64,000 nucleotides of DNA from Centroberyx gerrardi (taxonomy: Eukaryota > Chordata > Actinopteri > Beryciformes > Berycidae): NCBI RefSeq assembly GCF_048128805.1, contig NC_136005.1, positions 13,418,975 through 13,482,974 of the forward strand. The letters are read 5' to 3'. Below, piece by piece: positions 1,711-32,689 of this stretch (position 1 is its first letter; each line of letters starts with the position of its first letter). Position numbers and translations under genes: made by a program. The notes under the pieces were generated by a model. It saw only the letters and a program-made list of their open reading frames with translations. It was not told the origin of the DNA and did no database searches.

Positions 1711-3180
1711 ATGATGCGTGGTTTGCACACATTTCTGCTTTTTCATGTTCTGACATGTCTGGGACAAAAAGGTAAGACTCTCTCAGGAGGGAAAACTGAT
1801 TAGTATTTATCTTTTGGGCTTACATTAACTATTTGTGATCTATATTTCTTTCTTTCATTTATCTATCTTTACATTCTTTTCAGCACTTGGGAGTAAAATC
1901 ATAAATGGGGAGAAGGCCCAGGAGAAGTCATTGCTGTACATGGCATCAGTGCAGTATAATGGAAAACATGTATGTGGAGGATTCCTTGTCAGCGAAGAGT
2001 TTGTAGTCACTGCTGCCCACTGCGACTTGAAGTGAGTTACTTTTCCTCTACAAGCAATCTCTGATTACTTTGATTGTAAATCAAATCAGAAATTTAAAGA
2101 GTGAACATGACTTTATGTTATATATGCCTAATATTTTCAAAAGTGATGAATCATTTTTTTGTGGCACTACATGAGAAAAACTATTGACAACTTCTCACTG
2201 ATCATTTATTCAGGACAAATGCCAAAATGAGTGTTGTTCTTGGCACCCACAACCTCAAGAGAGTGAATAAGAAAACAATGAGATACAATGTAATGAAATA
2301 CAAACACCCATGCTATGAGGACACCGAATACGGAAATGACATCATGCTCCTCAAAGTAAGCAGATATTTATTCAACCTAATCTAATAGTCATGAGTGACA
2401 TTGTGGCATTTTACAGTCCTCTGCAAATCCCTTGTGTTTAGTTAAGTTTTTGTTTTGTTTCATTTAGTTCAACAATTGTAAAAAATAAAATGTATAGCAA
2501 AACATTGTCAAGCATGACGCATTAAAATCAGAGACTTATTTCTAATGCAATTAAATGTAAAAAACATGGTGGTAAATGAATAGCAACATACATACATAAC
2601 ATTACTACAAAAAAACAAAACAAAAAAAAAACAATTTTGTGTGTTTCTAGCTGTCTAGGAAAGCTAAACTAAGTGAAACGATCAAAACAATTCAACTTCC
2701 AAGTCAGGATGAAATCATCAAAGCCAACACAAAGTGCATTGTAGCTGGATGGGGATACATTAAAACTGGCGGTACGGCTGTTAATAACCTGAGAGTCGTG
2801 GATGTGTCTACCATCGACCTGGACGTCTGTCAGGAGGAATGGAATCAGATTTCAGGAGGGCCGCTCACCCTTCCAGCCAATATTATCTGTGCAGGTGGAT
2901 ATGAGACAAACAAAGGATTTTGTCAGGTGTGTTGTATTCCTTTTCCCTACAAATATGAAATGTCAACTGGTATGAATGAACAAATTGAGATATGTTTTTT
3001 CTCTCATAGGGTGATTCTGGTGGCCCTCTGGTGTGCAATGGGACGGCAGTCGGCATTGTATCTTTCAACTACCGTGAAATCTGTGACTACCCAACTGTAC
3101 CCAACGGCTATGTGGAGATATCAAAATTCCTTCCCTGGATCGAAAAGATTCTCAAAGAAAAGGCATTCAAGGTGTACTAG
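1711..3180 (+). CDS. Granzyme-like secreted serine protease, gene 1
   Basis: Five coding exons with GT-AG borders: 1,711-1,771; 1,884-2,031; 2,214-2,355; 2,651-2,926; 3,010-3,180. Together they encode 265 residues, the usual size for granzymes. Residues 1 to about 20 form a signal peptide; GSK is followed by IING at 26, the expected mature end after zymogen cleavage. The S1-family triad is complete: H66 in TAAHC, D112 in NDIMLL, S212 in GDSGGP. The four conserved disulphides are present, including 191-220, which granzyme B, chymase and cathepsin G lack. S1-pocket positions read G189, F190, Q192, N216, N226, so it is unlikely to be trypsin-like by the D189 route. C103 is an extra, possibly unpaired cysteine. 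AATAAA lies at 3,281. It probably acts in leukocyte granules as an immune effector protease (inferred); substrate unknown. It is intact and closest to genes 3 and 5. Confidence 0.88.
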
Positions 3181-3540
3181 TCTCACACAAGAAGCTTTGT
3201 TTCAACATACTTCTACTATATTTAGAGGTATCGTAGTATCTGAGTAGTTCTGTCAGTGTCTGCTGCTTAACCCAATGCATAATAAACTTGGTTTATTCCA
3301 TATACTGTTTTGTTTCTGACTCCATGCTCATTATTAGAATGATATAATGATATATAAATTAATAAAAAATGCATGGAACTTTTTCCAACATTCACAAACA
3401 ATGAATGCCTCTCACACAAAATTATTGCTGGTGTAAACCACATTATGTGTTACTATATACTAAACTTATGAGTCATCATTAGAATTTTGCTTACAAAATA
3501 GTTCTGTTTTAAATCACATGTGTTTTTGAAATACTGAATT

Positions 3541-3790
3541 TCAGGTTGCAATTGTTTCTAGGATGGATACATATCATTTTCTAATGAAGCCCCTCATACA
3601 GAGTAGAGGAAACAGGAGGTTCTGGCAGGACTCGACCCAGCAGACCAGCAGGGTCTTGTGTGTTGGCTCTAAAGGGAAGAGTCTTAACCACTCCTTTCTA
3701 ACTCTCCACCCCCACTGCTGGAGATACAGAGACACTGGCCTCACAACCTGAACCCAAAAGGCCGTACAGAGCCCCACACACATTCAATAG
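3541..3790. repeat. Conserved 250-bp island after protease gene 1
   Basis: This stretch recurs after every protease gene (9,663; 19,974; 22,705; 33,049) with only one or two differences, although its flanks differ clearly between the gene 1/3 and gene 2/4 types. On the minus strand it contains a tRNA-Ser/Leu-like GAGTGGTTAAG and a B-box-like GGGTCGAGTCC. Short ORFs on both strands are not supported as genes. Confidence 0.7.
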
Positions 3791-4154
3791 TGTATCAACA
3801 TTTGAAATTAAAAGGTGCTTCTTCCCTGCTGTTTATGCTGATGAACCTTAGATTATTCTGTCTGTATCCTAGCACAAAAAAAAATAAAAAAATACTAAAA
3901 CAGTCTTTGTTCCATGCTTAATAAAAGCACATTCACTATTGTGGTTTGTCTGACATCTTTTACGGTGCATGAAACAGAATGTAAAAATTGCAGTATTCTT
4001 TTTTTTTTTTTTTTTTATCAAAGAATAATATGTTTTGCTAATGAGTGATTAAAAAACATTATGATTCCTTCATCACCCAGAGATGAGGACATCAGTTGTG
4101 GTCATGGTGCAGGTGACCACAGGCTGCAGTAAGTGATGTGAAACAACACCACAT

Positions 4155-4650
4155 CCTTTTTTCAGTGCTTCACAATCAAGACAAACAAAACATTGACAAA
4201 TGATATAGATCAATAAAACAGGACAATGAGGCAAACCAGTATTAAAAATAAATAGATAAATAAAACCAAATAAAATTAAATGTTCCAACCACATTTGAAT
4301 AAATAGCAGACAAGGCAAATAAAATAAAATGACAGAAAAAAACAAACTAATAAGAGCTAAATATGATAAATAGGCCTTAGATAAAAATAAGTTTTTGCAG
4401 AGTGATTTAAAAGATGATACTGACTCTGCCAGCCTGAGCAGGCAAGCCGTTCCAAAGCCACAGAGCCCTGATGGAAAAAGCCCGGTCACCTCTAGTCCTT
4501 GACCTGAACACAGGAACAGTCAGAAGGTTCCTGCCTGAGGATCTCAGACTGCACACAGGTTCATACAGGAACAAAAGTTCATTATGATAACTAGGGTCCA
4601 GGCCATGCACAGCCTTAAAATCCTAAAGCCACAGGCAGTGAGCATTAAGC
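4155..4650 (-). mobile_element. LINE 3' fragment (CR1/L2-like ORF2 C-terminus)
   Basis: The minus strand encodes the end of a non-LTR reverse transcriptase ORF: HGLDPSY, then SRTRGDRAF and LWNGLPAQAG, then a weak KSLCKNLF stretch, the standard C-terminal sequence of fish CR1/L2-like LINEs. It is 5' truncated. Copies sit at 10,258, 11,276, 20,588, 23,301 and 24,319. The homologous site after gene 5 (about 33,680) lacks it. Confidence 0.65.
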
Positions 4651-5282: not shown

Positions 5283-5325
<43 letters not shown>

Positions 5326-6176: not shown

Positions 6177-6626
6177 GAAACACAAGCAATTGTTTTAGTT
6201 ACAGTTTCATTGGATATAGTATGTGAGACCTCACTAAAACCACTGACCTCACTAAAAGACAATTGCACAGGTACAGACAGGATGTGGCTGTAAGAGTTCA
6301 GATATAATATAATCTAGATGGGAACGACAAGGCAGACTCTGCTGTATATAAGGATCTATTTGAGACCACCATGAGACCAGGTTGAGTGTCCTGCCTGCAT
6401 GATGCGTGGTTTGCACAAATTTCTGCTTTTTCATGTTCTGACATGTCTGGGACAAAAAGGTAAGACTCTCTCAGGAGGAAAAACTGATTAGTATTTATTT
6501 GTTTGGCTTACATTAACTATTTGTGATTTATCTTCCTTTCTTTCATTTATCTATCTTTTCATTCTTTTCAGCATTTGGGAGTGAAATCATAAATGGGAAA
6601 AAGGCCCAGAAGAAGACATTCCTCTA

Positions 6627-7608
6627 TGTTAGGCTTGACCCGATTAGCGGCTGGATTCACAGCAAAAGAGGCGGTGGTACGGTGCAACCAAAGGTGTTTA
6701 TTCACCCACAAAAATGACATAACAAGACAAAAATGACACTAAGTTGCAAAAAATGAGAGCATGGCTATGAGCAGCTCTCCAGGGTCCTACCAATAGCTGA
6801 GGCAGATGAACACTGGCAGCCCTTTATACTCTGCCTCAGGTAATTAACCTGGATGCTACCAACTATAGGGGTCACTTGCATAACATTCAACAATACAATA
6901 CACTGCCCCCTTTAACCTACCAGTCTACATATCTATCCGATACATACAGTCAAATTGATGTTGCTCTCAAACAATAAATACTGCAACATATAAACAATAT
7001 ACATTTGAGTTCAAACACCCACACAACACACAACACCCCCCCTGCTATCCCATCACATGGTCCCTCCCGGAACTATATATAGGTGCTCGGACACCCCGGG
7101 GAACTCTTTTGCCCGAACACCCTGGAACACAGACAAGACAGCACAGGTAAGTGATTGCATGAACCAACAATTAAAACCCTTACATTGCACCACTGTAGTA
7201 TTGCACTTAGAAATATATATTGCACTTAAGGTATTGCACTTAGAAATATTGCACTTGCCCATACCAAATCATGATATTCAACTAAACAATGAAAACCCAT
7301 TTCATGTCAGGTTGAGTACTGAACATTTGTTTGTTTCCTTCAGGTGGAGCTTCAATCCTTGACCATGCTGAGTAACTGCTCCAGCAGGACAAGATAAAAT
7401 AACTCACACAAACAAACTTAAAATGTTTAGTAAAATATATATATATATTCAATAAAATACTTTAAATCATGACTCTGTTTGCAATTATTAATGCTGTGCA
7501 AATATTACTGTGCAAACTATGCTGTGCAAACCATTTAATAAATCAAAGTGTACAATACAAATGTGCAAATAGTGCAAAGGATTAGTAACGAAGTGTGCCT
7601 TCGTTACA
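6627..7608. mobile_element. Solo LTR of an LTR retroelement
   Basis: A 982-bp block starting TG and ending CA, flanked by the 5-bp direct repeat CTCTA (6,622-6,626 and 7,609-7,613). It holds a TATA-like stretch near 7,070 and AATAAA-type signals in its last third, with no internal coding region. This is what recombination between the two LTRs of a provirus-like element leaves. The family is not assigned from sequence alone; a 5-bp duplication suits gypsy-, copia- or ERV-type elements. With one LTR, age cannot be estimated. The unit 2 gene has lost exon 2, so it cannot order the insertion against the duplication. Confidence 0.82.
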
Positions 7609-8351: not shown

Positions 8352-8391
<40 letters not shown>

Positions 8392-8412: not shown

Positions 8413-9662
8413 ATTTTAATTTTTTTTTGCAAGTTGGTAGTTCTAATACACACTATATTATAATGCTGTACAAAAAGCTAACAGCAACATTCAAATAAAT
8501 CATTCTGCAGCTCTATCTTGCAGCCATTGTTTGACTTTGAACCTAAAGATGTGCTGACTTGAGGTCTGTTTAACAGATGGATAGAGGAAGTTTGTCGTGA
8601 TATTAAGCCCTACTAGTCTTTAATTTTTACTTTTTGATTCTGTGTGTTTCTAGCTGTCTAGGAAAGCTAAACTAAGCAAAACAATGAAAACAATTAAACT
8701 TCCAAGTCAGGATAAAATCATCAAAGCCAACACAAAGTGCATTGTAGCCGGATGGGGATTAATTAAAACTGGCGGTACGACTGTTGATGACCTGCGAGTC
8801 GTGGATGTGTCTACCATCGACCTGAAAGTCTGTCAGAGGGCATGGAAACGCCTTCTAGCCAATGTTATCTGTGCAGGTGGATATAAGACAAAAAAAGGAT
8901 TTTGTCAGGTGTGTTGTATTCCTTTCTCTACAAATATAAAATGTCAACTGGTATGAATGAACAAATTAAGATGTGTTTTTTTCTCTCATAGGGTGATTCT
9001 GGTGGCCCTCTGGTGTGCAATGGGAAGGCAGTCGGCATTGTATCTTTCAACAACAGTGACAACTGTGACTACCCAGATCTACCCAATGTCTATACAGAGA
9101 TATCAAAATTCCTTCCCTGGATCAAAAAGATTCTCAAGAAAAAGGCATGTAAGGTGTACTAGTCTTACACAAGAAGCTTTGTTTCAACATACTTCTGTTA
9201 TATATAGAGGTATCGTAGTATCTGAGTAGTTCTGTCAATGTCTGCTGCTTAACCTAATGCATAATAAACTTGGTTTATTCCAAATTATGTTTTGTTTCTG
9301 ACTCCATGCTCCAGAACGATATAAGACACAGAACAATGTATAAGTTAATAAAAAATGCAAGGCCTTTTTTCCAACAATATATTGACAAAACCTCTCAGGT
9401 TAAGTTTGATGTTGTATGTTCAATGGACATACAGTAGGGTTCAGTGATCAGGCACAAGCAGAAGTTTCTAAAATCAGATAAACTTTGAAAACATTTGAAA
9501 AATGCCTACTCCCACAAAATGATTGTTGGTATGATAGTAAACCACATTATGGGTTACTATATAAAAATAACTAAACTAATATACTAAACTTATGAGTCAT
9601 CATTAGAATTTTGCTTACAAAATAGTTGTGTTTTAAATCATGTGTTTTTGAAATACTGAATT

Positions 9663-9912
9663 TCAGGTTACAATTGTCTCTAGGATGGATACATATCATT
9701 TTCTAATGAAGCCCCTCATACAGAGTAGAGGAGACAGGAGGTTCTGGCAGGACTCGACCCAGCAGACCAGCAGGGTCTTGTGTGTTGGCTCTAAAGGGAA
9801 GAGTCTTAACCACTCCTTTCTAACTCTCCACCCCCACTGCTGGAGATACAGAGACACTGGCCTCACAACCTGAACCCAAAAGGTCGTACAGAGCCCCACA
9901 CACATTCAATAG
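9663..9912. repeat. Conserved 250-bp island after protease gene 2
   Basis: Same island as at 3,541. The 62-codon stretch inside it differs from the gene 1 copy by a single codon, while the 400 bp between gene end and island have clearly diverged. Confidence 0.7.
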
Positions 9913-10257
9913 TGTATCAACATTTGAAATTAAAAGGTGCTTCTTCCCTGCTGTTTATGCTGACGAATCTCATATTATTCTGTCTGTATCCTAGCACAAA
10001 AAAAAGCAATCTTTGTTCCATGCTTAATAAAAGCAAATTCACTATTGTGGTTTGTCTGACATCTTTTACGGTGCATGAAACACAATGTAAAAATTGCAGT
10101 ATTCTTTCTTTTTTTTTTTATCAAAGAATAATATGTTTTGCTAATGAGTGATTAAAAAACATTATGATTCCTTCATCACCCAGAGATGAGGACATCAGTT
10201 GTGGTCATGGTGCAGGTGACCGCAGGCTGCAGTAAGTGATGTGAAACAACACCACAT

Positions 10258-10440
10258 CCTTTTTTCAGTGCTTCACAATCAAGAGAAACAAAAGATTGAC
10301 AAATGACATAGATCAATAAAACACGACAAAGAGGCAGAGCGGTGATAAAAATAAATAAATAAATAAAACCAAATAAAATGAAATGTTCCAGCCACAATTG
10401 AATAAATAACAGACAACTTTGGAGAGTGATTTAAAAGATG
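10258..10440 (-). mobile_element. LINE 3' fragment, shortened copy
   Basis: The same fragment as at 4,155, but cut after about 180 bp and joined directly to the sequence that precedes the ghost promoter. Confidence 0.6.
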
Positions 10441-10494
10441 ATACTGACTCTGCCAGCCTGAGCAGCCAAGCCGCTCTCAGACAGCCAGTGGATG

Positions 10495-10747
10495 GCAAAT
10501 GAAGAGAGAGAGTGAAGAAGAGAGTCTGACAGATGTGACAGAACTCTGAGTTGAACCCATGACATACTGACTTCATGATATGTGCTTCAGCCTGCTGAGC
10601 CACCAGAACCACAAGCAGTTGTTTTAGTCACATATAGTTACAGTTTCCCTGGAAATATTATGTGAGAACACATCTCTCCACTGACCCCAACATCTTCACT
10701 AAAAGACATGTAGAGTTGCACAGGTACAGACAGGATGTGGCTATAAA
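10495..10747 (+). pseudogene. Ghost promoter of a lost protease gene (with SINE)
   Basis: Matches the upstream region of protease gene 2 (about 6,065-6,300): the SINE remnant, then CTTCACTAAAAGACAT, then ACAGGATGTGGCT. No protease exon follows. Instead an unrelated 500-bp block begins. This indicates a third protease gene in the ancestral unit whose coding part is gone. Confidence 0.65.
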
Positions 10748-11249
10748 GGCCTGGATATGCTTCCTCAGAACTGCTTCTGAGAACCTCCCAAAACGAACTT
10801 CCAGAAGCCCTGAACCTTCATGGTTCTTCAGAACAATAGGGTCTGTAGGAGGAGCTGCAGGCTGTCTGTCAAACAAGGGGGAGGGGTGGTAAACAGGAAC
10901 TAGTCATGGGTCAGAGGTGAAAGCCTGTGTTTCCTGTTGTCTGTTCAAAGAAATGGCGGCAGGCTTGTTTCCCATGTCACAGGTTTATTTGTGGCGCTCT
11001 GCTACAATATTGGCACGAGCCACCACAAAATCAAAAGTTGGTCAGCATATATAAATTGATCTAAAGCGATCTGTAGGGCTGCGCGTCGCGTTATGTTCTC
11101 TGTCGCACCAGAGACTGATCTCACCGGCGCTCACAGCTGCTGCTCCAAAGTGGATTCAAAAAGCCAAAGCAGCCACTGTATTTTTACGCACAGCTATTAT
11201 GCACGGCACCATAGGTCATTTAACTGATAAACGTGTCGCGCTAGCCGAG
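10748..11249. other. Unassigned block replacing a lost protease gene body
   Basis: About 500 bp, richer in CG dinucleotides than its surroundings in its second half, with no paralogue inside the unit. It begins where the ghost promoter stops and ends where the LINE-flank sequence resumes at GTAAGTGATGTGAAAC. No clear terminal repeats or target duplication and no credible ORF were found. It may be an insertion or the filler of a deletion. Confidence 0.5.
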
Positions 11250-11275
11250 TAAGTGATGTGAAACAACACCACATC

Positions 11276-11790
11276 CTTTTTTCAGTGCTTCACACTCAAG
11301 ACAAACAAAAGATTGACAAATGACATAGATCAATAAAACAGAAGGACAATGAGGCAGAGCGCTGATAAAAAATATTGAAAAATAAAACCAAATAAAATGA
11401 AATGTTCCAGCCACATTTGAATAAATAACAGACAAGGCAAATACAATAAAATGACAGGAACCCCCCCGCCCCCCCCCCAAAAAAATAAAATAAATAAAAA
11501 ACAAAAACAAATAAGAGCCAAAGATTATATAAAAGGCCTTAGATAAAAGTACGTTTTGCAGAGTGATTTAAAGGATGATACTGACTCTGCCAGCCTGAGC
11601 AGGCAAGCCGTTCCAAAGCCACGGAGCCCTGATGGAAAAAGCCCGGTCACCTCTAGTCCTTGACCTGAACACAGGAACAGTCAGAAGGTTCCTGCCTGAG
11701 GATCTCAGACTGCACACAGGTTCATACAGGATCAAAAGTTCATTATGATAACTAGGGTCCAGGCCATGCACAGCCTTAAAATCCCAAAGC
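11276..11790 (-). mobile_element. LINE 3' fragment (CR1/L2-like ORF2 C-terminus)
   Basis: Full-length version of the fragment at 4,155, with the same TRGDRAF and LWNGLPAQAG residues. It contains a C-tract at 11,461. Confidence 0.65.
11461..11478. repeat. C-tract (G-rich on minus strand)
   Basis: Seven C, one G, then ten C. The unit 2 copy has seven C, one G and eleven C, which suggests slippage after duplication. Confidence 0.9.
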
Positions 11791-12454
11791 CACAGGCTGT
11801 GAGCATTAAGCTAAAGTACATTGTTTCATTCTTCTTGCTAGTCAGCTACCACCACAACACTGCAACATTATTAAATTGAAAGAAAATTTGGCTGCCATGG
11901 GCATGAAAATAACACTGATTTGCCCAATTACATGTCAAAATTAGACTGATGAAGGAGATTTTTTAATAAATGCCCCAAGAAAGACAGCTACACTGATAAG
12001 AGGATTTATGAAAAAGCTCAATTTGTGACTTCAGTAGACTTGCACTGATGGAGATGCTGCGCCCTCTCATGGTCAAAAGGCAGAACAACTTTTAAAGTCT
12101 TACTTCAAACATGTCTGACTCTGGCCCTCTCTGCTGGGTATAATGAGGTACTGACCAGATAATAACAGCAAGAGGTATTGCATCTATATGCAATACTACA
12201 TCTGTTGGTATCTGACTGGATTGGTAAAGACAAAAAAACTAATGATGTGATGTAGTCAGACTTGTATAGTACTGCAGACACACTGAAGAATGTGTCCTTA
12301 TCTGAGATACTTCTTACAAGTCAAGTCACATTTATTTATGAAATGCTCTCAGTTGTGAATTCAGAAAATAAAGCCAGAAATTCAGATAAAAAAATATATA
12401 TATATAAAAAAGACAGAAAAAGTACGTCCCAGACTTTCAGAAACGGGTCAGAAC

Positions 12455-12531
<77 letters not shown>

Positions 12532-13468
12532 AAAGAGAGAGAGAGCGCACCCTTATCTGTGTGAGTGCATATATGTACATGTGTGAGAGCACTAGACAAT
12601 ACTACCTGCAGGCAAGGAAATGAGCAGAAAGTAAGGCTGGTATGGAGAGACCATGCAATTATGTATCTAAATACAGTAAACCCAACATCTACATGCATGT
12701 TCATGTGCAAGTGGGTATTTGTTTAGTTTCCAGTTGATACATAAGATCAAGGGAATTTAGATGGAAACATTTGGTCTGTAGAGAGTTAAGTGGTTTCATG
12801 AATGTGAGAACATCAATGCTCAAATCTGAGGCTGGAAACTGCGGTTTCAGTTTCCATGTTTCCTCTATTTTGTCAACGTGCAAAGAAATGTCATATGTAT
12901 ATGTCACACAACAAATGTGAAACACAGAAACTGGAAACTCAGATTTGAGAATTCATTTTCTCACATTTCTAAAACCACTTAATTCTCTAGACCAAATGTT
13001 TCCATCTACAGCAGAGATATGCCTCAGTCTGTTAATGTTTTAATTGACCAGAATTAAACATGTCTTTAATCAATGAAGTGTGATGATAATTAATCCTAAA
13101 TACTTTCATATGAAGCAAATACCCACCTGCACATAAACAGATATACATGTATGCAGGCACACTCATACATAAAATCAGGCATGCAAAATCATTGGATGCA
13201 CGCATGGATTTTTTCATTGACACTTCAAGATTTTAGCTTTATCTTTATAGTATTTAGGTGTTATACAGTGGATGGCCAATGAAATGAATGGTGGAAGAGA
13301 ATGTGACAGATGTTCAGGGTTCAATTTCAGATCTCCTTTTGTTCTTTTTATACCTGCATCCACTAAGTAAAATTATTCAGAAGTACAAAATATCCTTTCA
13401 TGTGTATGTCTACATATTTTATTTTTTCTGCTCTTGTGTTTTTATTCTTCTTGTATTTTTATTCTTGT
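11791..13468. other. Non-coding spacer between LINE fragment and LINE
   Basis: No gene is seen. Parts match 4,650-5,800, which shows an older duplication within the unit. It holds a long GT microsatellite at 12,456 and, near 13,265, a short piece resembling the SINE flank. Confidence 0.7.
12456..12530. repeat. (GT)n microsatellite, about 75 bp
   Basis: Uninterrupted GT run followed by a short GA stretch. The unit 2 equivalent at 25,497 is only about 52 bp long. ORFs of repeated Val-Cys or Thr-His across it are artefacts. Confidence 0.95.
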
Positions 13469-15031
13469 TCAAGTTCAAGTTTGTTTATTTATATATCCCT
13501 TTATCACAAGCATGTCTCAGAGGACTTTACAGAGAATGAGCCTAACTAGATCTAACTAAACAAAAACCAGTGGTGAACAAAATGATATAGGACAAGTATA
13601 GCGAAAAGCACAAGACAGGCAAGAGCAGATTCTAGCAAGACAAACAATCTACCTATTCTACGTAGCCTAACCTACCCGGCACCCCCAGCCTTAGACCCTA
13701 ATTGCACACAAGGAAAAACTCCCAAGAAAAACCTTAGTAGGAAAACTTGGAAGAAACCTTGGGCGGGCTGAGGCAAAGAGAGAACCTGAGAAAGAGGAGA
13801 GAAACAGCTGCACACAAAGACAACGAACACCGGAGTAAGAAACACATCCAGGTGGGAGCAGCATCAGGGACGGACTAAGGCCAACACCGACGACCGTCAG
13901 AGCTGGGGCAGCACCTGTCTGCTGACAGCTGGAAGACTGAGCCAGAATCTGAGAAAAGGGGGGAGAAAACCAGCCGCACACACACACACACACACTGCAG
14001 CTGTGCAAATGCAGCACATAAACCCAGACATATTTGGTCACAGACACACAGACAGCAAATAGAAAGTGATTAGACACAGTGTAACCAGGAGGCAGCCCTA
14101 AGCTATGTTCCCAATGTCAAATTCCTATATAAATACTGTCTGAGCTAAGGTAGAAGAATAGACTGTGTCGATCCCAAGCCAACGGTGCTATGGTAGGTCG
14201 TGTGATTGCGAGAATATGAAGGTTGTGAATCTAGATTTGAAGATTTCGACAGAATTAGCTTCGCTGACTGTAAGAGGTAGCTGGCTCCAGAGATAGGGAG
14301 CTCAGTAGGAGAACACTCTACTGCCTGCTGATTTTTTCTTGATTCTAGGGATAGTAAGGTAACCAGCGTCCTGGGATTGGAGGGCGGGAATGCAAGGAAT
14401 GATGACGGGACGATTTCTATGCTAACAGAAGCACCTTAAAGTCAGATCTGGCTTGAATTGGGAGCCAGTGAAGGGAGGTCAGGATTGGAGTAATGTGGTC
14501 AAATTTTCTAGTTGTGTAGTATTCTGGCGGCAGCATTTTGCACGAATACGACATTACAATAATTGAGCCTTGATATGGCATCCGCCATATTTAGCAGGGA
14601 ACGAATTTTCGAGATGTTGCGAAGGTGGAAAAATGCTATCTTAATGATTTCCTTAATGTGAGCATCGAATGAGAGAGCTGAGTTGAAAGTAACACCAAGG
14701 CTTTTAACTGTGGAACTCTGGAGAATTAAGCAATCCCCAAAATTGAAAGTAAGGTCTGCAACAGAAGGCAGTTGGGTTTTTGGGCCAATGACTATAGCAT
14801 CTCAGTTTTGTTGGCATTTAGTCGCAAGAAGTTTTGTGACATCCATTTTGTGACAGCGATTACGCATAATTGTAGGTTTGTAAGTTGTGAACGGTTGTCA
14901 GCTCTAATGCGTATGTAAATTTGAGTGTCGTCTGCATAACAGTGAAATTTAATACCATAGCTGCGGAAAATTTCACCAAGAGGTAGCATGTAAATGGGGA
15001 AAAGCAAAGGTCCTAGCACAGAGCCCTGCGG

Positions 15032-16000
15032 TCAAGGGCGTCACTTTGTGTTGAAAAGTGGTGGGGACACAAAACATTTTTTAGACGGTCTTCAACATAT
15101 GCGATTTTAGGCAATGTAATGGGGGGATCGGTATGAGGTCAGAGTAGATAATTACGGCAAGAAAAAAATTGCATAACGGCGCATCAAAAGGGCATAGCCT
15201 AGGCTACTACAGAGTCGACAATACGAAAATACTCAGCATAAAACGCTCAACAACGTCGACAAGTACAGTCACCCATATGCATCACATCCACAGCTGCAAC
15301 ACCATGTCAATCGAACAATGCCAATATCACATCTACTGTAGAAAGCACCAGTGCATGAAGACCTGGCTTCGCTCTTCAATGTCACAAACCCGACTCAACA
15401 GCGTGGCTGTTTGTCATGTTCACAGAGAGAGAACGGAAAACTTGGACAAGAAGAAACTGTGTCAAGAATTTGTTAAAGTTACTGATCGGAGCATGCACAT
15501 TTTTGGGTCATTTTAGAATCAGTCTCCCCAGCGTCCCCAGTGTAAATGACACCTGTGCCCTCTCCTGCTCTTCAGTCTCCTTTTTTCCTCCAGTGGCTCT
15601 CTCCCTCTTCCTCTTCCCTGTAACTGTTCACCTCAACAAATAATTTCATCTCTAAGTAAACTGTCCACCATGTGAGCGGTATGAAATGCTGGTATGTTTA
15701 ATAGAGACTTTGCAATTACAGCCACAGCAGGTGCCATGGAGGTCCATTTGAGAACTGGCTGTGCGCAAATAATGTGAAATATAGAACAAATATAGAACAA
15801 ACTGTGTGTTTTCTTATTGTGCAAATAAACCTTTCTCAAAGCGTTCTCATTTGTTAGTTAACATTTCTTGGTGCAAGCTATTTTTCAGAACATTTTTAAC
15901 AAATTATGCTTTTAAAAAGTGATGGGGACAAAATCGGCCATTTCAAAAAGTGGTGGGGACATGTGTGTCCCCAGCGTCCCCAGTGTAAATGACACCTATG
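15032..16000. mobile_element. Non-autonomous hAT-like element inside the LINE
   Basis: A 969-bp insertion flanked by CCTGCGG at 15,025-15,031 and 16,001-16,007. Without it the LINE reads straight through [10 protein letters not shown]. The ends are imperfect inverted repeats (AGGGCGTCAC and the complement of GTGACACC-like sequence), with GGTGGGGACA next to both. A second copy of the 3' terminal sequence lies internally near 15,520-15,562. An apparent 115-codon ORF inside resembles nothing known and is probably fortuitous. Confidence 0.7.
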
Positions 16001-16656
16001 CCTGCGGTACGCCACAGTTAACTTTAGAGTGTTCAGATATAATATTTTTGTGTGAGACACAACGCGTTCTATTGGATAAGTAGGAATTGAGCCAGGAAAG
16101 CGCAGAGTTGCGGATGCCAACATAGTTCGCTAGGCGGTTTAGGAGAATATTATGATCGACTGTATCGAATGCCGCTCTCAAATCAAGTAAGATAATAACA
16201 GAAGAAGAGTTGGAGTCTGAGGCAAGGAGTAGGTCATTTACCACCTTTGTGAGAGCAGTCTCAGTTTTAGATTTCTTTGAGCAGATTGAGCAGGTTTAAT
16301 TATGGCTGATTTGAAGGAGAAGGGCACAACGTCAGAGGAGAGAGAGGTATTGATGATGTTGAGTAGGGAGGGGCCTAATCAACTTAGTGGGAAGAGGGTC
16401 AGATAGGCTGGCTGTGGATTTAGAGGAAAGTAATTTAGAGATGGTGACCTCAAGTTTGGATGAGCGCCATTTGCGTTATAGCTTCAAGTCAAGCGAGTCA
16501 AGTAGAAGTAGTTGTGGAAGTATCAGTACGGCGGGTGCTGTAGGCATCAACTAGATTTGAATGCCGACAGGGCAGTTCAATTTTAAATTTAATGAGGTAA
16601 TGGTCTGATAATGCCGGTGGATATGCCAGAACTTTAGTATTGCCATTAGAATGGGT

Positions 16657-17470
16657 CAGTGGTGGGTAGAGTACTGAAAATCTATACTCAAGTAAAAGTA
16701 CAATTACTTCCATAAAAAATGACTGAAGTAAAAGTGAAAATTACCATTTGAGAAACCCACTCAAGTAAAAGTAAAAAAGTACATGGTTAATAAATTACTC
16801 AAAGTACAAGTTACTTTCCATTTTAATATTTTTAGGGTGTGCGGGCCAGTGCAAAATAATGAAAAAACAGCACTTGTTGATAAAACTTTCTTAGCCCTTT
16901 ATAAAACAGAATATAAGTCTGTTTAACTCTAGTATTTACAGACATTATCAAAGTAACCAAACCTATTACAGCCCCAAAATGCAGTAGATACCGAATACAA
17001 TACAATTAATTAAAACTCAGATTTTCTGTTCTGTAGTATTACTCCCTGTACCAAGACCTCAGTCAATCAACTAGAGAATGAAAACTTCTTTGCATTCACA
17101 TTTTTCATTTGGGGATACCCATTTGTTGGAAGCTGCCTCTTGTTCTGGGTTTTGCTCCGTCATCATCGCATCGTGGTCAAAAGACAGGTGATGCTTATTT
17201 TTCTTCCAGGCAGCTGGCAACTTGGCATCTGCAGTAGAGGTGCTCCTCGCGCTCTCCCCCCCCTACACTCAATCCCCGCATTTAGAGCAGACTAGTTGTA
17301 ACAAAGGTATAAATGGCAAATGTAGTGAAGTAAAAAGTAGATTACTGGCTCAAAAATATACCCGAGTAAAGAGTAGAAGTACAGTTTAAAAAAAGGAACT
17401 AGAAGTATTCGTTCCTTAAAAAAAACTACTTTTTTACTCATGTGCGTTAATGCGTTACTACCCACCCCTG
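16657..17470. mobile_element. Non-autonomous hAT-type element, second copy
   Basis: Same 814-bp element as at 323, with GAATGGGT target duplications at 16,649-16,656 and 17,471-17,478. Both copies have the same insertion site, so they arose by segmental duplication and not by separate insertions. Confidence 0.88.
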
Positions 17471-17744
17471 GAATGGGTCTGTTCGTGAATCAACTGAGTA
17501 AAGCCAAAAGTGTCAATTAGGGACGAAAAAGCTTTGCTAAGTGGATCAGTTTTACTATTTAGATGAATATTGAAATCACCGATAATTAAGATGTTGTCCG
17601 CACAAGTTACAAGGTCGGAGAGGAAATTGTAAAATTCTTCTAAAAAAGACGAATAGGGCCCAGGAGGGTGATAAACGATAATTAGGTAGAAAGGCAGTGG
17701 CAGGATACCAGAGTGTCTTGTCTTGTTTTATCCTTTGCATTTTT

Positions 17745-17829
17745 TATTCTTGTCTTTATAACCAATTTCTGTAAAGCACAAACTTGTTTTGTTTTAAAAG
17801 TGATGTATAAATAAACTTGAACTTGAACT
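17745..17829 (+). mobile_element. LINE 3' tail fragment
   Basis: Ends in GTATAAATAAACTTGAACTT, the type of 3' end seen on fish L2 elements, in plus orientation and abutting the 5' end of the minus-strand LINE. Present at 30,820 as well, absent from unit 1. Confidence 0.5.
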
Positions 17830-17839
17830 GGATGTGAGA

Positions 17840-17900
17840 GAACTCTGAGTTGAAGCCATGACATACTCATTACATGTGCTTCAGCCTGCTGAGCTACCAG
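17840..17900 (-). mobile_element. tRNA-derived SINE head upstream of protease gene 3
   Basis: Same remnant as at 1,414, slightly longer on the left (AACTCTGAGTTG retained). Confidence 0.5.
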
Positions 17901-18143
17901 ACACACAAGCAGTTGATTTAATCAGTTTCATTGAAAATAGTATGTGAGAACACATCTCTCCTGACCTCACTATCTTCACTAAAAGACATTAACTGTAGAG
18001 TTGCACTGGTACAAACAGGATGTGGCTGTCAGATATAAGGAAATCTATATGTGAACCACAAGGCTGTGCAGACTCTGCTCTATACAAGGACTACTCTGCT
18101 CTATTTGACATCATCATTAGACCAGGTTGAGTGTCCTGCCTGC

Positions 18144-19613
18144 ATGATGCGTGGTTTGCACACATTTCTGCTTTTTCATGTTCTGACATGTCTGGGACAA
18201 AAAGGTAAGACTCTCTCAGGAGGGAAAACTGATTAGTATTTATCTTTTGGGCTTACATTAACTATTTGTGATCTATATTTCTTTCTTTCATTTATCTATC
18301 TTTACATTCTTTTCAGCACTTGGGAGTAAAATCATAAATGGGGAGAAGGCCCAGGAGAAGTCATTGCTGTACATGGCATCAGTGCAGTATAATGGAAAAC
18401 ATGCATGTGGAGGATTCCTTGTCAACGAAGAGTTTGTAGTCACTGCTGCCCACTGCGACTTGAAGTGAGTTACTTTTCCTCTACAAGCAATCTCTGATTA
18501 CTTTGATTGTAAATCAAATCAGAAATTTAAAGAGTAAACATGACTTTATGTTATATATGCCTAATATTTTCAAAAGTGATGAATCATTTTTTTGTGGCAC
18601 TACATGAGAAAAAATATTGACAATCTCTCACTGATCATTTATTCAGGACAAATGCCAAAATGAGTGTTGTTCTTGGCACCCACAACCTAAAGAGAGTGAA
18701 TAAGAAAAAAATGAGATACAATGTAGTGAAATACAAACACCCATGCTATGAGCACGTCTCATCTGGGAATGACATCATGCTCCTCAAAGTAAGCAGATAT
18801 TTATTCAACCTAATCTAATAGTCATGAGTGACATTGTGGCATTTTACAGTCCTCTGCAAATCCCTTGTGTTTAGTTAAGTTTTTGTTTTGTTTCATTTAG
18901 TTCAACAATTGTAAAAAATAAAATGTATAGCAAAACATTGTCAAGCATGACGCATTAAAATCAGAGACTTATTTCTAATGCAATTAAATGTAAAAAACAT
19001 GGTGGTAAATGAATAGCAACATACATACATAACATTACTACAAAAAAACAAAACAAAAAAAAAACAATTTTGTGTGTTTCTAGCTGTCTAGGAAAGCTAA
19101 ACTAAGTGAAACGATCAAAACAATTCAACTTCCAAGTCAGGATGAAATCATCAAAGCCAACACAAAGTGCATTGTAGCTGGATGGGGATACATTAAAACT
19201 GGCGGTACGGCTGTTGATAACCTGAGAGTCGTGGATGTGTCTACCATCGACCTGGACGTCTGTCAGGAGGAATGGAATCAGATTTCAGGAGGGCCGCTCA
19301 CCCTTCCTGCCAATATTATCTGTGCAGGTGGATATGAGACAAACAAAGGATCTTGTCAGGTGTGTTGTATTCATTTTCCCTACAAATATGAAATGTCAAC
19401 TGGTATGAATGAACAAATTAAGATGTGTTTTTTCTCTCATAGGGTGATTCTGGTGGCCCTCTGGTGTGCAATGGGACGGCAGTCGGCATTGCATCTTTCA
19501 TCTACCGTGGAATCTGTGACTACCCAACTGTACCCAACGGCTATGTGGACATATCAAAATTCCTTCCCTGGATCGAAAAGATTCTCAAGGAAAAGGCATT
19601 CAAGGTGTACTAG
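18144..19613 (+). CDS. Granzyme-like secreted serine protease, gene 3
   Basis: Exons 18,144-18,204; 18,317-18,464; 18,647-18,788; 19,084-19,359; 19,443-19,613, encoding 265 residues with signal peptide, IING at 26 and triad H66, D112, S212. Exons 1, 2 and 4 and intron 3 are almost identical to gene 1, but two short patches are not. The loop just before D112 reads YEHVSSGND instead of YEDTEYGND, and the loop before C220 reads ASFIYRGIC instead of VSFNYREIC. Position 190 is Ser instead of Phe (GSCQ), which changes the wall of the S1 pocket. It probably acts as a granule or secreted effector protease with a specificity different from gene 1 (inferred). AATAAA lies at 19,714. Confidence 0.88.
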
Positions 19614-19973
19614 TCTCACACAAGAAGCTTTGTTTCAACATACTTCTGCTATATATAGAGGTATCGTAGTATCTGAGTAGTTCTGTCAGTGTCTGCTGCT
19701 TAACCCAATGCATAATAAACTTGGTTTATTCCATATACTGTTTTGTTTCTGACTCCATGCTCATTATTAGAATGATATAATGATATATAAATTAATAAAA
19801 AATGCAAGGAACTTTTTCCAACATTCACAAACAATGAATGCCTCTCCCACAAAATTATTGCTGGTGTAAACCACATTATGTGTTACTCTATACTAAACTT
19901 ATGAGTCATCATTAGAATTTTGCTTACAAAATAGTTCTGTTTTAAATCACATGTGTTTTTGAAATACTGAATT

Positions 19974-20223
19974 TCAGGTTGCAATTGTTTCTAGGATGGA
20001 TACATATCATTTTCTAATGAAGCCCCTCATACAGAGTAGAGGAGACAGGAGGTTCTGGCAGGACTCGACCCAGCAGACCAGCAGGGTCTTGTGTGTTGGC
20101 TCTAAAGGGAAGAGTCTTAACCACTCCTTTCTAACTCTCCACCCCCACTGCTGGAGATACAGAGACACTGGCCTCACAACCTGAACCCAAAAGGTCGTAC
20201 AGAGCCCCACACACATTCAATAG
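19974..20223. repeat. Conserved 250-bp island after protease gene 3
   Basis: Same island as at 3,541, with the tRNA-like boxes on the minus strand. Confidence 0.7.
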
Positions 20224-20587
20224 TGTATCAACATTTGAAATTAAAAGGTGCTTCTTCCCTGCTGTTTATGCTGATGAACCTTAGATTATTCTGTCTGTAT
20301 CCTAGCACAAAAAAAAAATAAAAAATACTAAAACAGTCTTTGTTCCATGCTTAATAAAAACAAATTCACTATTGTGGTTTGTCTGACATCTTTTACGGTG
20401 CATGAAACAGAATGTAAAAATTGCAGTATTCTTTTTTTTTTTTTTTTTTATCAAAGAATTATATGTTTTGCTAATGAGTGATTAAAAAACATTATGACTC
20501 CTTCATCATCCAGAGATGAGGACATCAGTTGTGGTCATGGTGCAGGTGACCACAGGCTGCAGTAAGTGATGTGAAACAACACCACAT

Positions 20588-21083
20588 CCTTTTTTCAGTG
20601 CTTCACAATCAAGACAAACAAAACATTGACAAATGATATAGATCAATAAAACAGGACAATGAGGCAAACCAGTGATAAAAATAAATAGATAAATAAAACC
20701 AAATAAAATTAAATGTTCCAACCACATTTGAATAAATAGCAGACAAGGCAAATAAAATAAAATGACAGAAAAAAACAAACTAATAAGAGCTAAATATGAT
20801 AAATAGGCCTTAGATAAAAATAAGTTTTTGCAGAGTGATTTAAAAGATGATACTGACTCTGCCAGCCTGAGCAGGCAAGCCGTTCCAAAGCCACGGAGCT
20901 CTGATGGAAAAAGCCCGGTCACCTCTAGTCCTTGACCTGAACACAGGAACAGTCAGAAGGTTCCTGCCTGAGGATCTCAGACTGCACACAGGTTCATACG
21001 GGAACAAAAGTTCATTATGATAACTAGGGTCCAGGCCATGCACAGCCTTAAAATCCTAAAGCCACAGGCAGTGAGCATTAAGC
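20588..21083 (-). mobile_element. LINE 3' fragment (CR1/L2-like ORF2 C-terminus)
   Basis: Unit 2 copy of the fragment at 4,155, with the same TRGDRAF and LWNGLPAQAG residues. Confidence 0.65.
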
Positions 21084-21698: not shown

Positions 21699-22207
21699 CT
21701 GTCTAGAAAAGCTAAACTAAGCAAAACAATGAAAACAATTAAACTTCCAAGTCAGGATAAAATCATCAAAGCCAACACAAAGTGCATTGTAGCCGGATGG
21801 GGATTAATTAAAACTGGCGGTACGACTGTTGATGACCTGCGAGTCGTGGATGTGTCTACCATCGACCTGAAAGTCTGTCAGAGGGCATGGAAAAGCCTTC
21901 CAGCCAATATTATCTGTGCAGGTGGATATAAGACAAACAAAGGATTTTGTCAGGTGTGTTGTATTCCTTTCTCTACAAATATAAAATGTCAACTGGTATG
22001 AATGAACAAATTAAGATGTGTTTTTTTCTCTCATAGGGTGATTCTGGTGGCCCTCTGGTGTGCAATGGGAAGGCAGTCGGCATTGCATCTTTCAACAACA
22101 ACTATATCTGTGACTACCCAGATCTACCCAATGTCTATACAGAGATATCAAAATTCCTTCCCTGGATCAAAAAGATTCTCAAGAAAAAGGCATGTAAGGT
22201 GTACTAG
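21699..22207 (+). pseudogene. Granzyme-like serine protease gene 4, only exons 4 and 5 left
   Basis: Exon 4 (21,699-21,953) and exon 5 (22,037-22,207) are intact and in frame, with GDSGGP and the C220 loop (NNNYICDYPD). Exons 1 to 3, including signal peptide, activation site, His and Asp, are absent together with the promoter. The intron 3 acceptor CTTTCTAG survives. It is the unit 2 counterpart of gene 2 and like it has the shorter 255-nt exon 4. No functional protease can be made from this locus. AATAAA lies at 22,308. Confidence 0.85.
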
Positions 22208-24292: not shown

Positions 24293-24318
24293 TAAGTGAT
24301 GTGAAACAACACCACATC

Positions 24319-25495: not shown

Positions 25496-25550
<55 letters not shown>

Positions 25551-29025: not shown

Positions 29026-29731
29026 CCTGCGGTACGCCACAGTTAACTTTAGAGTGTTCAGATATAATATTTTTGTGTGAGACACAACGCGTTCTATTGG
29101 ATAAGTAGGAATTGAGCCAGGAAAGCGCAGAGTTGCGGATGCCAACATAGTTCGCTAGGCGGTTTAGGAGAATATTATGATCGACTGTATCGAATGCCGC
29201 TCTCAAATCAAGTAAGATAATAACAGAAGAAGAGTTGGAGTCTGAGGCAAGGAGTAGGTCATTTACCACCTTTGTGAGAGCAGTCTCAGTTTTAGATTTC
29301 TTTGAGCAGATTGAGCAGGTTTAATTATGGCTGATTTGAAGGAGAAGGGCACAACGTCAGAGGAGAGAGAGGTATTGATGATGTTGAGTAGGGAGGGGCC
29401 TAATCAACTTAGTGGGAAGAGGGTCAGATAGGCTGGCTGTGGATTTAGAGGAAAGTAATTTAGAGATGGTGTCTAAGGAGACAGTCTCAAATTGCGGCTA
29501 GCACTCCATGCTAGCTGAAAGACCTCAAGTTTGGATGAGCGCCATTTGCGTTATAGCTTCAAGTCAAGCGAGTCAAGTAGAAGTAGTTGTGGAAGTATCA
29601 GTACGGCGGGTGCTGTAGGCATCAACTAGATTTGAATGCCGACAGGGCAGTTCAATTTTAAATTTAATGAGGTAATGGTCTGATAATGCCGGTGGATATG
29701 CCAGAACTTTAGTATTGCCATTAGAATGGGT

Positions 29732-30545
29732 CAGTGGTGGGTAGAGTACTGAAAATCTATACTCAAGTAAAAGTACAATTACTTCCATAAAAAATGACTG
29801 AAGTAAAAGTGAAAATTACCATTTGAGAAACCCACTCAAGTAAAAGTAAAAAAGTACCTGGTTAATAAATTACTCAAAGTACAAGTTACTTTCCATTTTA
29901 ATATTTTTAGGGTGTGCGGGCCAGTGCAAAATAATGAAAAAACAGCACTTGTTGATAAAACTTTCTTAGCCCTTTATAAAACAGAATATAAGTCTGTTTA
30001 ACTCTAGTATTTACAGACATTATCAAAGTAACCAAACCTATTACAGCCCCAAAATGCAGTAGATACCGAATACAATACAATTAATTAAAACTCAGATTTT
30101 CTGTTCTGTAGTATTACTCCCTGTACCAAGACCTCAGTCAATCAACTAGAGAATGAAAACTTCTTTGCATTCACATTTTTCATTTGGGGATACCCATTTG
30201 TTGGAAGCTGCCTCTTGTTCTGGGTTTTGCTCCGTCATCATCGCATCGTGGTCAAAAGACAGGTGATGCTTATTTTTCTTCCAGGCAGCTGGCAACTTGG
30301 CATCTGCAGTAGAGGTGCTCCTCGCGCTCTCCCCCCCCTACACTCAATCCCTGCATTTAGAGCAGACTAGTTGTAACAAAGGTATAAATGGCAAATGTAG
30401 TGAAGTAAAAAGTAGATTACTGGCTCAAAAATATACCCGAGTAAAGAGTAGAAGTACAGTTTAAAAAAAGGAACTAGAAGTATTCGTTCCTTAAAAAAAA
30501 CTACTTTTTTACTCATGTGCGTTAATGCGTTACTACCCACCCCTG
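29732..30545. mobile_element. Non-autonomous hAT-type element, third copy
   Basis: Same 814-bp element as at 323, with GAATGGGT duplications at 29,724-29,731 and 30,546-30,553. Confidence 0.88.
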
Positions 30546-30819
30546 GAATGGGTCTGTTCGTGAATCAACTGAGTAAAGCCAAAAGTGTCAATTAGGGACG
30601 AAAAAGCTTTGCTAAGTGGATCAGTTTTACTATTTAGATGAATATTGAAATCACCGATAATTAAGATGTTGTCCGCACAAGTTACAAGGTCGGAGAGGAA
30701 ATTGTAAAATTCTTCTAAAAAAGACGAATAGGGCCCAGGAGGGTGATAAACGATAATTAGGTAGAAAGGCAGTGGCAGGATACCAGAGTGTCTTGTCTTG
30801 TTTTATCCTTTGCATTTTT

Positions 30820-30904
30820 TATTCTTGTCTTTATAACCAATTTCTGTAAAGCACAAACTTGTTTTGTTTTAAAAGTGATGTATAAATAAACTTGAACTTG
30901 AACT
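30820..30904 (+). mobile_element. LINE 3' tail fragment
   Basis: Same fragment as at 17,745, ending in GTATAAATAAACTTGAACTT. Confidence 0.5.
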
Positions 30905-30914
30905 GGATGTGAGA

Positions 30915-30975
30915 GAACTCTGAGTTGAAGCCATGACATACTCATTACATGTGCTTCAGCCTGCTGAGCTACCAG
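30915..30975 (-). mobile_element. tRNA-derived SINE head upstream of protease gene 5
   Basis: Same remnant as at 17,840. Confidence 0.5.
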
Positions 30976-31218
30976 ACACACAAGCAGTTGATTTAATCAG
31001 TTTCATTGAAAATAGTATGTGAGAACACATCTCTCCTGACCTCACTATCTTCACTAAAAGACATTAACTGTAGAGTTGCACTGGTACAAACAGGATGTGG
31101 CTGTCAGATATAAGGAAATCTATATGTGAACCACAAGGCTGTGCAGACTCTGCTCTATACAAGGACTACTCTGCTCTATTTGACATCATCATTAGACCAG
31201 GTTGAGTGTCCTGCCTGC

Positions 31219-32689
31219 ATGATGCGTGGTTTGCACACATTTCTGCTTTTTCATGTTCTGACATGTCTGGGACAAAAAGGTAAGACTCTCTCAGGAGGGA
31301 AAACTGATTAGTATTTATCTTTTGGGCTTACATTAACTATTTGTGATCTATATTTCTTTCTTTCATTTATCTATCTTTACATTCTTTTCAGCACTTGGGA
31401 GTAAAATCATAAATGGGGAGAAGGCCCAGGAGAAGTCATTGCTGTACATGGCATCAGTGCAGTATAATGGAAAACATGTATGTGGAGGATTCCTTGTCAG
31501 CGAAGAGTTTGTAGTCACTGCTGCCCACTGCGACTTGAAGTGAGTTACTTTTCCTCTACAAGCAATCTCTGATTACTTTGATTGTAAATCAAATCAGAAA
31601 TTTAAAGAGTGAACATGACTTTATGTTATATATGCCTAATATTTTCAAAAGTGATGAATCATTTTTTTGTGGCACTACATGAGAAAAACTATTGACAACT
31701 TCTCACTGATCATTTATTCAGGACAAATGCCAAAATGAGTGTTGTTCTTGGCACCCACAACCTCAAGAGAGTGAATAAGAAAACAATGAGATACAATGTA
31801 ATGAAATACAAACACCCATGCTATGAGGACACCGAATACGGAAATGACATCATGCTCCTCAAAGTAAGCAGATATTTATTCAACCTAATCTAATAGTCAT
31901 GAGTGACATTGTGGCATTTTACAGTCCTCTGCAAATCCCTTGTTAAGTTAAGTTTTTGTTTTGTTTCATTTAGTTCAACAATTGTAAAAAATAAAATGTA
32001 TAGCAAAACATTGTCAAGCATGACGCATTAAAATCAGAGACTTATTTCTAATGCAATTAAATGTAAAAAACATGGTGGTAAATGAATAGCAACATACATA
32101 CATAACATTACTACAAAAAAACAAAACAAAAAAAAAACAATTTTGTGTGTTTCTAGCTGTCTAGGAAAGCTAAACTAAGTGAAACGATCAAAACAATTCA
32201 ACTTCCAAGTCAGGATGAAATCATCAAAGCCAACACAAAGTGCATTGTAGCTGGATGGGGATACATTAAAACTGGCGGTACGGCTGTTGATAACCTGAGA
32301 GTCGTGGATGTGTCTACCATCGACCTGGACGTCTGTCAGGAGGCATGGAATCAGATTTCAGGAGGGCCGTTCACCCTTCCTGCCAATATTATCTGTGCAG
32401 GTGGATATGAGACAAACAAAGGATTTTGTCAGGTGTGTTGTATTCCTTTTCCCTACAAATATGAAATGTCAACTGGTATGAATGAACAAATTAAGATGTG
32501 TTTTTTCTCTCATAGGGTGATTCTGGTGGCCCTCTGGTGTGCAATGGGACGGCAGTCGGCATTGTATCTTTCAACCACAAAGTTAAAAAGTGTGACTACC
32601 CAGATGTACCCAACGTCTATACAGAGATATCAAAATTCCTTCCCTGGATCGAAAAGATTCTCAAAGAAAAGGCATTCAAGGTGTACTAG
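31219..32689 (+). CDS. Granzyme-like secreted serine protease, gene 5
   Basis: Exons 31,219-31,279; 31,392-31,539; 31,722-31,863; 32,157-32,432; 32,516-32,689, encoding 266 residues. Signal peptide, IING at 26, H66, D112 and S212 are present. Exons 1 to 3 read the same as gene 1, including the YEDTEYGND loop. Exon 5 instead resembles the gene 2/4 type near its end ([13 protein letters not shown]) and has a unique charged loop, [10 protein letters not shown], one residue longer than in the other genes. The gene looks like a mosaic of the two subfamilies, probably by gene conversion (inference). S1 residues: G189, F190, N226. AATAAA lies at 32,790. It is the array copy nearest to the single-copy protease downstream. 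Confidence 0.88.

What the first reader, a model, noticed from the sequence alone, without database searches (positions are those of the whole stretch)
1711..32689. Tandem granzyme-like array with diversity concentrated in the substrate-cleft loops
Five related protease loci share near-identical framework and introns, but two short loops differ in almost every copy. Before the catalytic Asp: YEDTEYGND (genes 1 and 5), YEHVSSGND (3), YDGVQYGND (2). Before C220: FNYREIC (1), FIYRGIC (3), FNNSDNC (2), FNNNYIC (4), FNHKVKKC (5). In the chymotrypsin fold these are the 99 loop and the 217-225 loop, which shape the S2-S4 and S1/S3 pockets. This suggests diversifying selection on specificity, as in a pathogen-driven effector array.
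Basis: partly seen in the sequence, partly recalled or inferred. Interest (0 to 1): 0.8.

Follow-up and report, generated by a model that had tools for sequence, protein, structure and literature searches.

The report
Fish granzyme-like array with shuffled loops
A fish chromosome carries a row of twenty related immune-type protease genes whose bodies are nearly alike but whose substrate-gripping loops differ and look swapped between neighbours, so one gene family may have become a set of protein cutters with different targets.

Summary
The loop variants are real. In the window 3 of 5 loci are intact; one has a 982-bp insertion in exon 2, one keeps only exons 4-5. The window holds the end of a 116-kb, 20-locus array (15 intact frames) in what looks like the fish met-ase locus: POLRMT-type exons lie 64 kb upstream, and the S1 triplet is G-N-N (14 of 15) with Cys191 and Cys220, as in the catfish granzyme-like I group. 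Diversity sits in five cleft loops (37, 99, 147, 170, 217), not two. Loop divergence exceeds intron divergence in 103 of 105 pairs; catalytic and S1-floor residues are invariant. Loop distances are nearly uncorrelated, and tracts match other paralogs, so short-tract gene conversion is likely; mosaicism is gene-wide. Best reading: conversion-shuffled specificity loops kept diverse by selection over a fixed S1 floor. The relatives are known; scale and five-loop pattern look like a new variant.

The parts
   Evidence: PF00089 E 1.7e-59
1955..1972 (+). g16 37-loop YNGKHV
   Evidence: coordinates; variable in the array
2308..2331 (+). g16 99-loop PCYEDTEY, before GND102
2756..2788 (+). g16 147-loop [11 protein letters not shown]
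2831..2875 (+). g16 170-loop [15 protein letters not shown]; 8, 10 or 15 residues across 15 genes
3067..3081 (+). g16 217-loop NYREI before C220; 4, 5 or 6 residues across 15 genes
6627..7608 (.). 982-bp insertion in g17 exon 2, TG...CA ends, 5-bp CTCTA duplication (6622-6626 and 7609-7613): solo-LTR-like
   Evidence: copy number not obtained
9049..9063 (+). g17 217-loop NNSDN, inside a 102-bp exact match to g05 and g06
18741..18764 (+). g18 99-loop PCYEHVSS: holds 7 of a cluster of 8 differences in 15 bp against g16/g20 (g16 coordinates 2320-2334); core GTCTCATCTGGG shared with other VSSG paralogs
22094..22108 (+). g19 217-loop NNNYI, inside a 173-bp exact match to g14
32573..32590 (+). g20 217-loop NHKVKK, inside an 87-bp exact match to g08, in a gene otherwise close to g16 (introns 3/670, non-loop CDS 6/660 differences)
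34832..36309 (+). g21: diverged S1A protease exons at the downstream edge, not part of the close array
8647..16446 (+). segmental duplication, 98.9% identical to 21692-29471
16446..20592 (+). segmental duplication, 96.6% identical to 29521-33677

Best explanation
A lineage-specific expansion of one fish met-ase-locus granzyme-like gene into 20 tandem loci (15 with intact frames). Shown: five loops that in the chymotrypsin fold surround the substrate cleft hold about half of the minimum amino acid changes (87 of 172) in 46 of 266 codons; loop types recur on different backgrounds and are nearly independent of each other; catalytic residues, S1 floor (189, 226) and Cys191/Cys220 are fixed. Inferred: unequal crossing-over makes copies, ectopic gene conversion moves short tracts with loops between them, and selection keeps new loop combinations. 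The array would encode proteases with one primary (P1) preference, plausibly Met as in catfish granzyme-like I, and different extended (P4-P2') specificities, or different resistance to inhibitors, stored in granules of cytotoxic or other leukocytes. Expression, activity and a pathogen as driver are inferred, not shown.
For: Loops above introns in 103 of 105 pairs, non-loop CDS above introns in 5 of 105. Five loops dN 0.30, dS 0.22; framework dN 0.048, dS 0.078; core introns 0.068-0.113. Residue diversity 0.413 in cleft loops v 0.148 in five non-cleft surface segments; 21/46 v 5/70 columns with 3 or more residues, Fisher 1.8e-6. 13 five-loop sets in 15 genes. Loop-loop distance correlations -0.10 to 0.19; recombination test p 0.001 for the gene. 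Exact tracts g20-g08 87 bp, g19-g14 173 bp, g17-g05/g06 102 bp (no significance computed). H57, D102, S195, G189, N226, C191, C220 15 of 15; N216 14 of 15. M2a over M1a 2dlnL 94, omega 5.6 on 15% of sites, against at most 17.3 in 20 simulations with conversion and no positive selection. POLRMT-type exons 64 kb upstream.
Against: Loop dN/dS is not clearly above 1: two named loops 0.93 to 1.19; five loops 1.27-1.33 by counting, 1.86 by codon model, and 1 of 32 neutral-hotspot simulations is as extreme. Under that null M2a gave 6 to 77 in 6 runs. Of 26 sites with posterior 0.9 or more for positive selection, 13 lie in the loops, 13 outside, and only 1 in the 217 loop. Introns and framework blocks are also weakly correlated with each other, so exchange is gene-wide, not loop-specific. 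The broken pair g17/g19 differs mostly in loops too. The closest pairs g02/g03 and g05/g06 have 0 loop differences. Loop and non-cleft ranges were fixed after I saw the alignment. In-frame loop indels are no evidence for the 15, which were chosen for intact frames.
Confidence: 0.65

Rival explanations
1. Neutral version: the loops tolerate change and lie in conversion-prone or mutation-prone stretches; conversion homogenises the rest, and no diversifying selection acts.
For: Loop dS is also raised (0.22 v 0.078; alpha 2.7 times framework; codons with synonymous variants, p 0.014); dN/dS of the two named loops is about 1; the broken copies g17/g19 differ in loops too.
Against: The variable segments are five separate stretches in exons 2, 3, 4, 4 and 5 that meet only in the folded protein; non-cleft surface segments vary less; synonymous variants counted per residue class are not raised in loops (19/125 v 34/256, p 0.64).
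Confidence: 0.19
2. A sub-case of the best explanation with another driver: the loops diversify to escape protease inhibitors (host, parasite or viral) rather than to take new substrates.
For: Cleft loops also contact protease inhibitors (established knowledge); the sequence evidence is the same.
Against: No inhibitor data here; not separable by sequence alone.
Confidence: 0.2
3. Assembly artefact: alleles or mis-joined copies make a false array.
For: A 200-N gap lies in the array at C9:13381272; duplicated blocks in the window are 95.9-99.8% identical, partly within fish allelic divergence (general knowledge).
Against: No N in the window; three units of different length; close exon-4 and exon-5 copies were found on this chromosome only; shared loop types occur in copies whose introns differ by 4% (g04/g05) or over 8% (g08/g20, not among the 14 closest pairs). 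Reads were not available.
Confidence: 0.06
4. Plain divergence by point mutation after duplication, without exchange of tracts.
For: Some loop changes are single steps (g07 v g08 VKF/VKV).
Against: Shared tracts of 87-173 bp between otherwise different copies; loop distances unrelated to each other and the recombination test.
Confidence: 0.05

Closest known systems
Fish met-ase-locus granzyme-like proteases: catfish granzyme-like I, zebrafish AE-like (PMC4646688, PMC10778636, PMC10855939; passages read, and section 11 of the first)
   Same: GNN triplet, Cys191/Cys220, met-ase locus marked by POLRMT
   Different: Catfish and zebrafish are described with three PRSS57-derived genes there; here 20 loci of one close type with shuffled loops
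Nile tilapia GzmA/K locus expansion (13 genes and a pseudogene; PMC4646688 passage)
   Same: Large fish expansion of a hematopoietic protease locus
   Different: GzmA/K are generally DGG and in another locus; here GNN
Rodent kallikrein arrays (PMC3114847 passages; Wines 1991 on rat kallikreins seen only as a title in its reference list)
   Same: Tandem S1A array, positively selected sites mapping to one face; gene conversion proposed for rat
   Different: PMC3114847 finds little conversion in mouse and rat; here it looks frequent
Wild-mouse granzyme B allele (PMC4263754; abstract and outline read)
   Same: Natural variants of one granzyme that keep the P1 class, differ in substrate preference and change the outcome of a viral infection
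   Different: Alleles of one gene, not a shuffled array
Rat chymase locus (28 genes) and ruminant duodenases (search listings only)
   Same: Tandem expansion with diverse cleavage specificities
   Different: Other loci; I did not examine loop exchange there

Membership tests
S1A chymotrypsin-fold serine protease | Trypsin domain with H57, D102, S195 | tested here: met
   PF00089 E 1.7e-59 for g16, the one spliced protein scanned; triad in 15 of 15 intact genes
Fish GNN group (catfish granzyme-like I) | S1 triplet 189-216-226 = G-N-N | tested here: met
   14 of 15; g18 is G-I-N; numbering set by hand from conserved anchors
Fish GNN group (catfish granzyme-like I) | Cys191 and Cys220 | tested here: met
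   15 of 15; feature from PMC4646688 passage
Fish GNN group (catfish granzyme-like I) | Lies in the fish met-ase locus | tested here: met
   RNA_pol (PF00940) exons 64 kb upstream, read as POLRMT (that animals' PF00940 gene is POLRMT is recalled). One marker only: PF14369, tried for RNF126, gave no hit in the genome
Fish GNN group (catfish granzyme-like I) | Groups with catfish granzyme-like I in a tree | not tested
   catfish sequence not held
Fish GNN group (catfish granzyme-like I) | Met at P1; expression in NK-like cells | not testable with these tools
   no enzyme or expression data
Granzyme / hematopoietic serine protease | Five exons, triad residues in exons 2, 3, 5 | tested here: met
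   that this is the family pattern is recalled
Granzyme / hematopoietic serine protease | Two-residue pro-segment before I16 | tested here: inconclusive
   ...ALG-SE/SK-IING in the 15 intact genes (AIG in g13); signal cleavage site inferred
Granzyme A/K | DGG triplet | tested here: not met
   G-N-N
Mammalian chymase-locus protease | Lacks the Cys191-Cys220 bridge | tested here: not met
   both cysteines present; feature from PMC4646688 passage

The most novel reading that the evidence does not exclude
A germline combinatorial protease repertoire: ectopic gene conversion exchanges five substrate-cleft loops nearly independently among about 20 granzyme-like genes with a fixed S1 floor, so that selection by changing intracellular targets or inhibitors acts on loop combinations, much as on MHC groove or antibody CDR diversity.
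Probability: 0.35. Interest if true: 0.82.

Novelty: new variant of a known kind. Interest (0 to 1): 0.6.

Why it matters
It offers a natural library in which the protease body and S1 floor are held nearly constant while five specificity loops vary, so the part each loop plays in extended specificity can be measured. If the enzymes are lymphocyte granzymes, it suggests that some fish diversify cytotoxic effectors by exchange of loops.

Tried and rejected
Two-loop dN/dS as proof of positive selection: rejected, ratio about 1. M1a/M2a alone as proof: rejected, since a neutral-hotspot null also gives high values (6 runs). Other arrays of the genome as yardsticks: C20 has 10 copies of each of two exon pieces; the 217 loop is alike in 10 of 10 except one R to Q just after Cys220, the 99 loop differs in 2 of 10; inner copies are near-identical, outer ones diverged. 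C12 shows three exon-5 copies with the same 217 loop and two identical 99-loop exons. Both are too little diverged to be matched controls. PF14369 as a second locus marker: no hit in the genome. Structure prediction: not sent, since spliced proteins are not letter for letter in the DNA. Copy number of the g17 insertion: five requests unanswered. Papers: the listings showed no report of such loop exchange in a fish granzyme-like array; that covers an open-licence library, mostly by title and start of abstract.

Choices that could favour my reading: the 60-loop and 224-228 stretch were counted as loops at first and put in the framework later; loop and non-cleft ranges were set after seeing the alignment; g15 was dropped before all codon counts; g09, g11, g17, g19 were used only for tracts and for the g17-g19 pair; g16-g20 was cut at w3700 and g18-g20 was not run (one search gives its loops 19/135 and introns 6/670). 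In one search the most divergent 24-bp windows lie in intron 3, above the loops, where insertions make the alignment gappy.
Full report
What is in the window. g16, g18 and g20 are intact, with five exons and 265, 265 and 266 residues. g17 has a 982-bp insertion in exon 2 with TG/CA ends and a CTCTA duplication. g19 has exons 4-5 only; its repeat unit lacks the stretch that holds exons 1-3 in g17's unit. A diverged sixth protease, g21, lies at 34832-36309.

The array is larger than the window. Exon-5 and exon-4 queries found 18 and 19 close copies, all on C9 between 13336668 and 13451660; the next matches are much weaker (the tool calls such counts lower bounds). After fetching 94.5 kb upstream I count 20 loci between 13335767 and 13451660: 15 intact frames; g15 with a frame break at the end of exon 2; g09 with exons 1-3 only; g11 incomplete in exons 3 and 4, about 500 bp from a 200-N gap; g17; g19. 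There is also a stray exon 1 at 13394131.

Which locus. Exons of the single-subunit RNA polymerase family PF00940, which I read as POLRMT, lie at C9:13253177-13271959, 64 kb before the first copy. In PMC4646688 (passages; section 11) POLRMT is among the genes at the centre of the met-ase locus, the fish subgroup with catfish granzyme-like I generally has the triplet GNN, and fish proteases of this kind have an extra Cys191-Cys220 bridge. Here G189 and N226 are 15 of 15, N216 14 of 15 and both cysteines 15 of 15. [quoted passage not shown] PMC10855939 (passages) describes three PRSS57-derived genes there in catfish and zebrafish. Tree membership was not tested, and a second marker, PF14369, gave no hit.

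Where the variation is. In the 15 intact genes five segments vary: 37, 99, 147, 170 and 217 loops (numbering by hand). By Nei-Gojobori counts five loops have dN 0.30 and dS 0.22, and the mature framework, there without the 60-loop and 224-228, has dN 0.048 and dS 0.078. Core introns diverge by 0.068-0.113. Loops exceed introns in 103 of 105 pairs; the rest of the coding sequence does so in 5 of 105. Loops hold 87 of a minimum 172 nonsynonymous changes in 46 of 266 codons. Mean residue difference is 0.413 in the cleft loops, 0.148 in five non-cleft surface segments and 0.093 in the rest of the mature protein; 21 of 46 against 5 of 70 columns have three or more residues. The 170 loop has 8, 10 or 15 residues and the 217 loop 4, 5 or 6. 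In a sliding scan, gappy parts of intron 3 are more divergent still.

How the loops differ. Aligning g16, g18 and g20, the stretch w1413-2250 holds six differing columns; then 8 differences fall in 15 bp at the 99 loop (g18 alone), and 19 columns differ in exon 5 between 3059 and 3117, 15 of them in g20 alone and 4 in g18 alone. The g20 tract is identical to g08 over 87 bp; g19 matches g14 over 173 bp and g17 matches g05 and g06 over 102 bp (no significance computed). Loop distances are almost uncorrelated with each other (-0.10 to 0.19), but introns and framework blocks are also only weakly correlated (-0.23 to 0.57), so the genes are mosaics throughout. The recombination test gives p 0.001 for the whole gene and for the CDS, 0.015 for pooled introns, 0.048, 0.046 and 0.012 for exons 3, 4 and 5, and 0.75 for intron 3 alone. 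The closest pairs, g02/g03 and g05/g06, have no loop difference.

Selection. With a tree for each exon block, M2a beats M1a by 2dlnL 94, with 15% of sites at omega 5.6; 26 sites reach posterior 0.9, 13 in the five loops and 13 outside. In 20 simulations with conversion and no positive selection the largest 2dlnL was 17.3 and 5 of 20 passed 5.99, so the test is liberal here; those runs gave 0 to 11 sites at 0.9, on a coarser grid. With a separate synonymous rate for loops, the five loops have omega 1.86 (2dlnL 7.7 against 1) and the two named loops 1.19 (2dlnL 0.25). In 32 simulations of a neutral hotspot with conversion, 1 was as extreme; M2a in 6 of them gave 6 to 77. A tree-free minimum count gives 1.33 for five loops (p 0.14), 0.93 for the two loops and 0.71 for the framework; the N:S contrast of loops and framework has p 0.05. 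Synonymous variants are raised in loops per codon (p 0.014) but not per residue class (p 0.64). So diversifying selection is likely, mainly because five separate DNA stretches that meet at the cleft all vary while other surface segments vary less, but dN/dS alone does not prove it.

Most likely mechanism. Duplication makes copies; ectopic conversion of short tracts moves loops between them; selection keeps new combinations. The floor of S1 is fixed, so members probably share a primary preference and differ at other subsites. That the enzymes are active, stored in leukocyte granules and pushed by pathogens is inference from their relatives.

Novelty. Expansions of fish protease loci (PMC4646688), positive selection on protease surfaces (PMC3114847 passages; PMC3068966 passages, which found no conversion in its three genes) and functional variants of granzyme B (PMC4263754 abstract) are known. 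The eight paper searches did not show a fish granzyme-like array with exchange of five cleft loops.

Noticed in passing
window 6627-7608: 982-bp insertion in g17 exon 2 with TG...CA ends and a 5-bp CTCTA duplication, like a solo LTR; genome copy number could not be obtained
   Followed up: partly
window 34832-36309: Diverged S1A protease (g21) at the array edge; exon pieces 30-57% identical to g16
   Followed up: partly
window 38795-40121: Two Spin-Ssty (spindlin) exons
   Followed up: partly
window 50526-51440: Short-chain dehydrogenase exons (first over the Pfam cut-off, second below it); resembles an 11-beta-hydroxysteroid dehydrogenase relative (from memory)
   Followed up: partly
window 27817-28056 and 14792-15031, minus strand: Reverse transcriptase fragments of a LINE-like element in two repeat units (Pfam scan of the first only; the second is its near-identical copy)
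   Followed up: partly
C9:13381272-13381471 (L044): 200-N gap inside the array, about 500 bp from the incomplete copy g11
   Followed up: no
L049-L050 (C20:16591501-16611500): Another S1A array of about 10 copies at 1.9-kb spacing, inner copies nearly identical including the loops, outer ones diverged
   Followed up: partly
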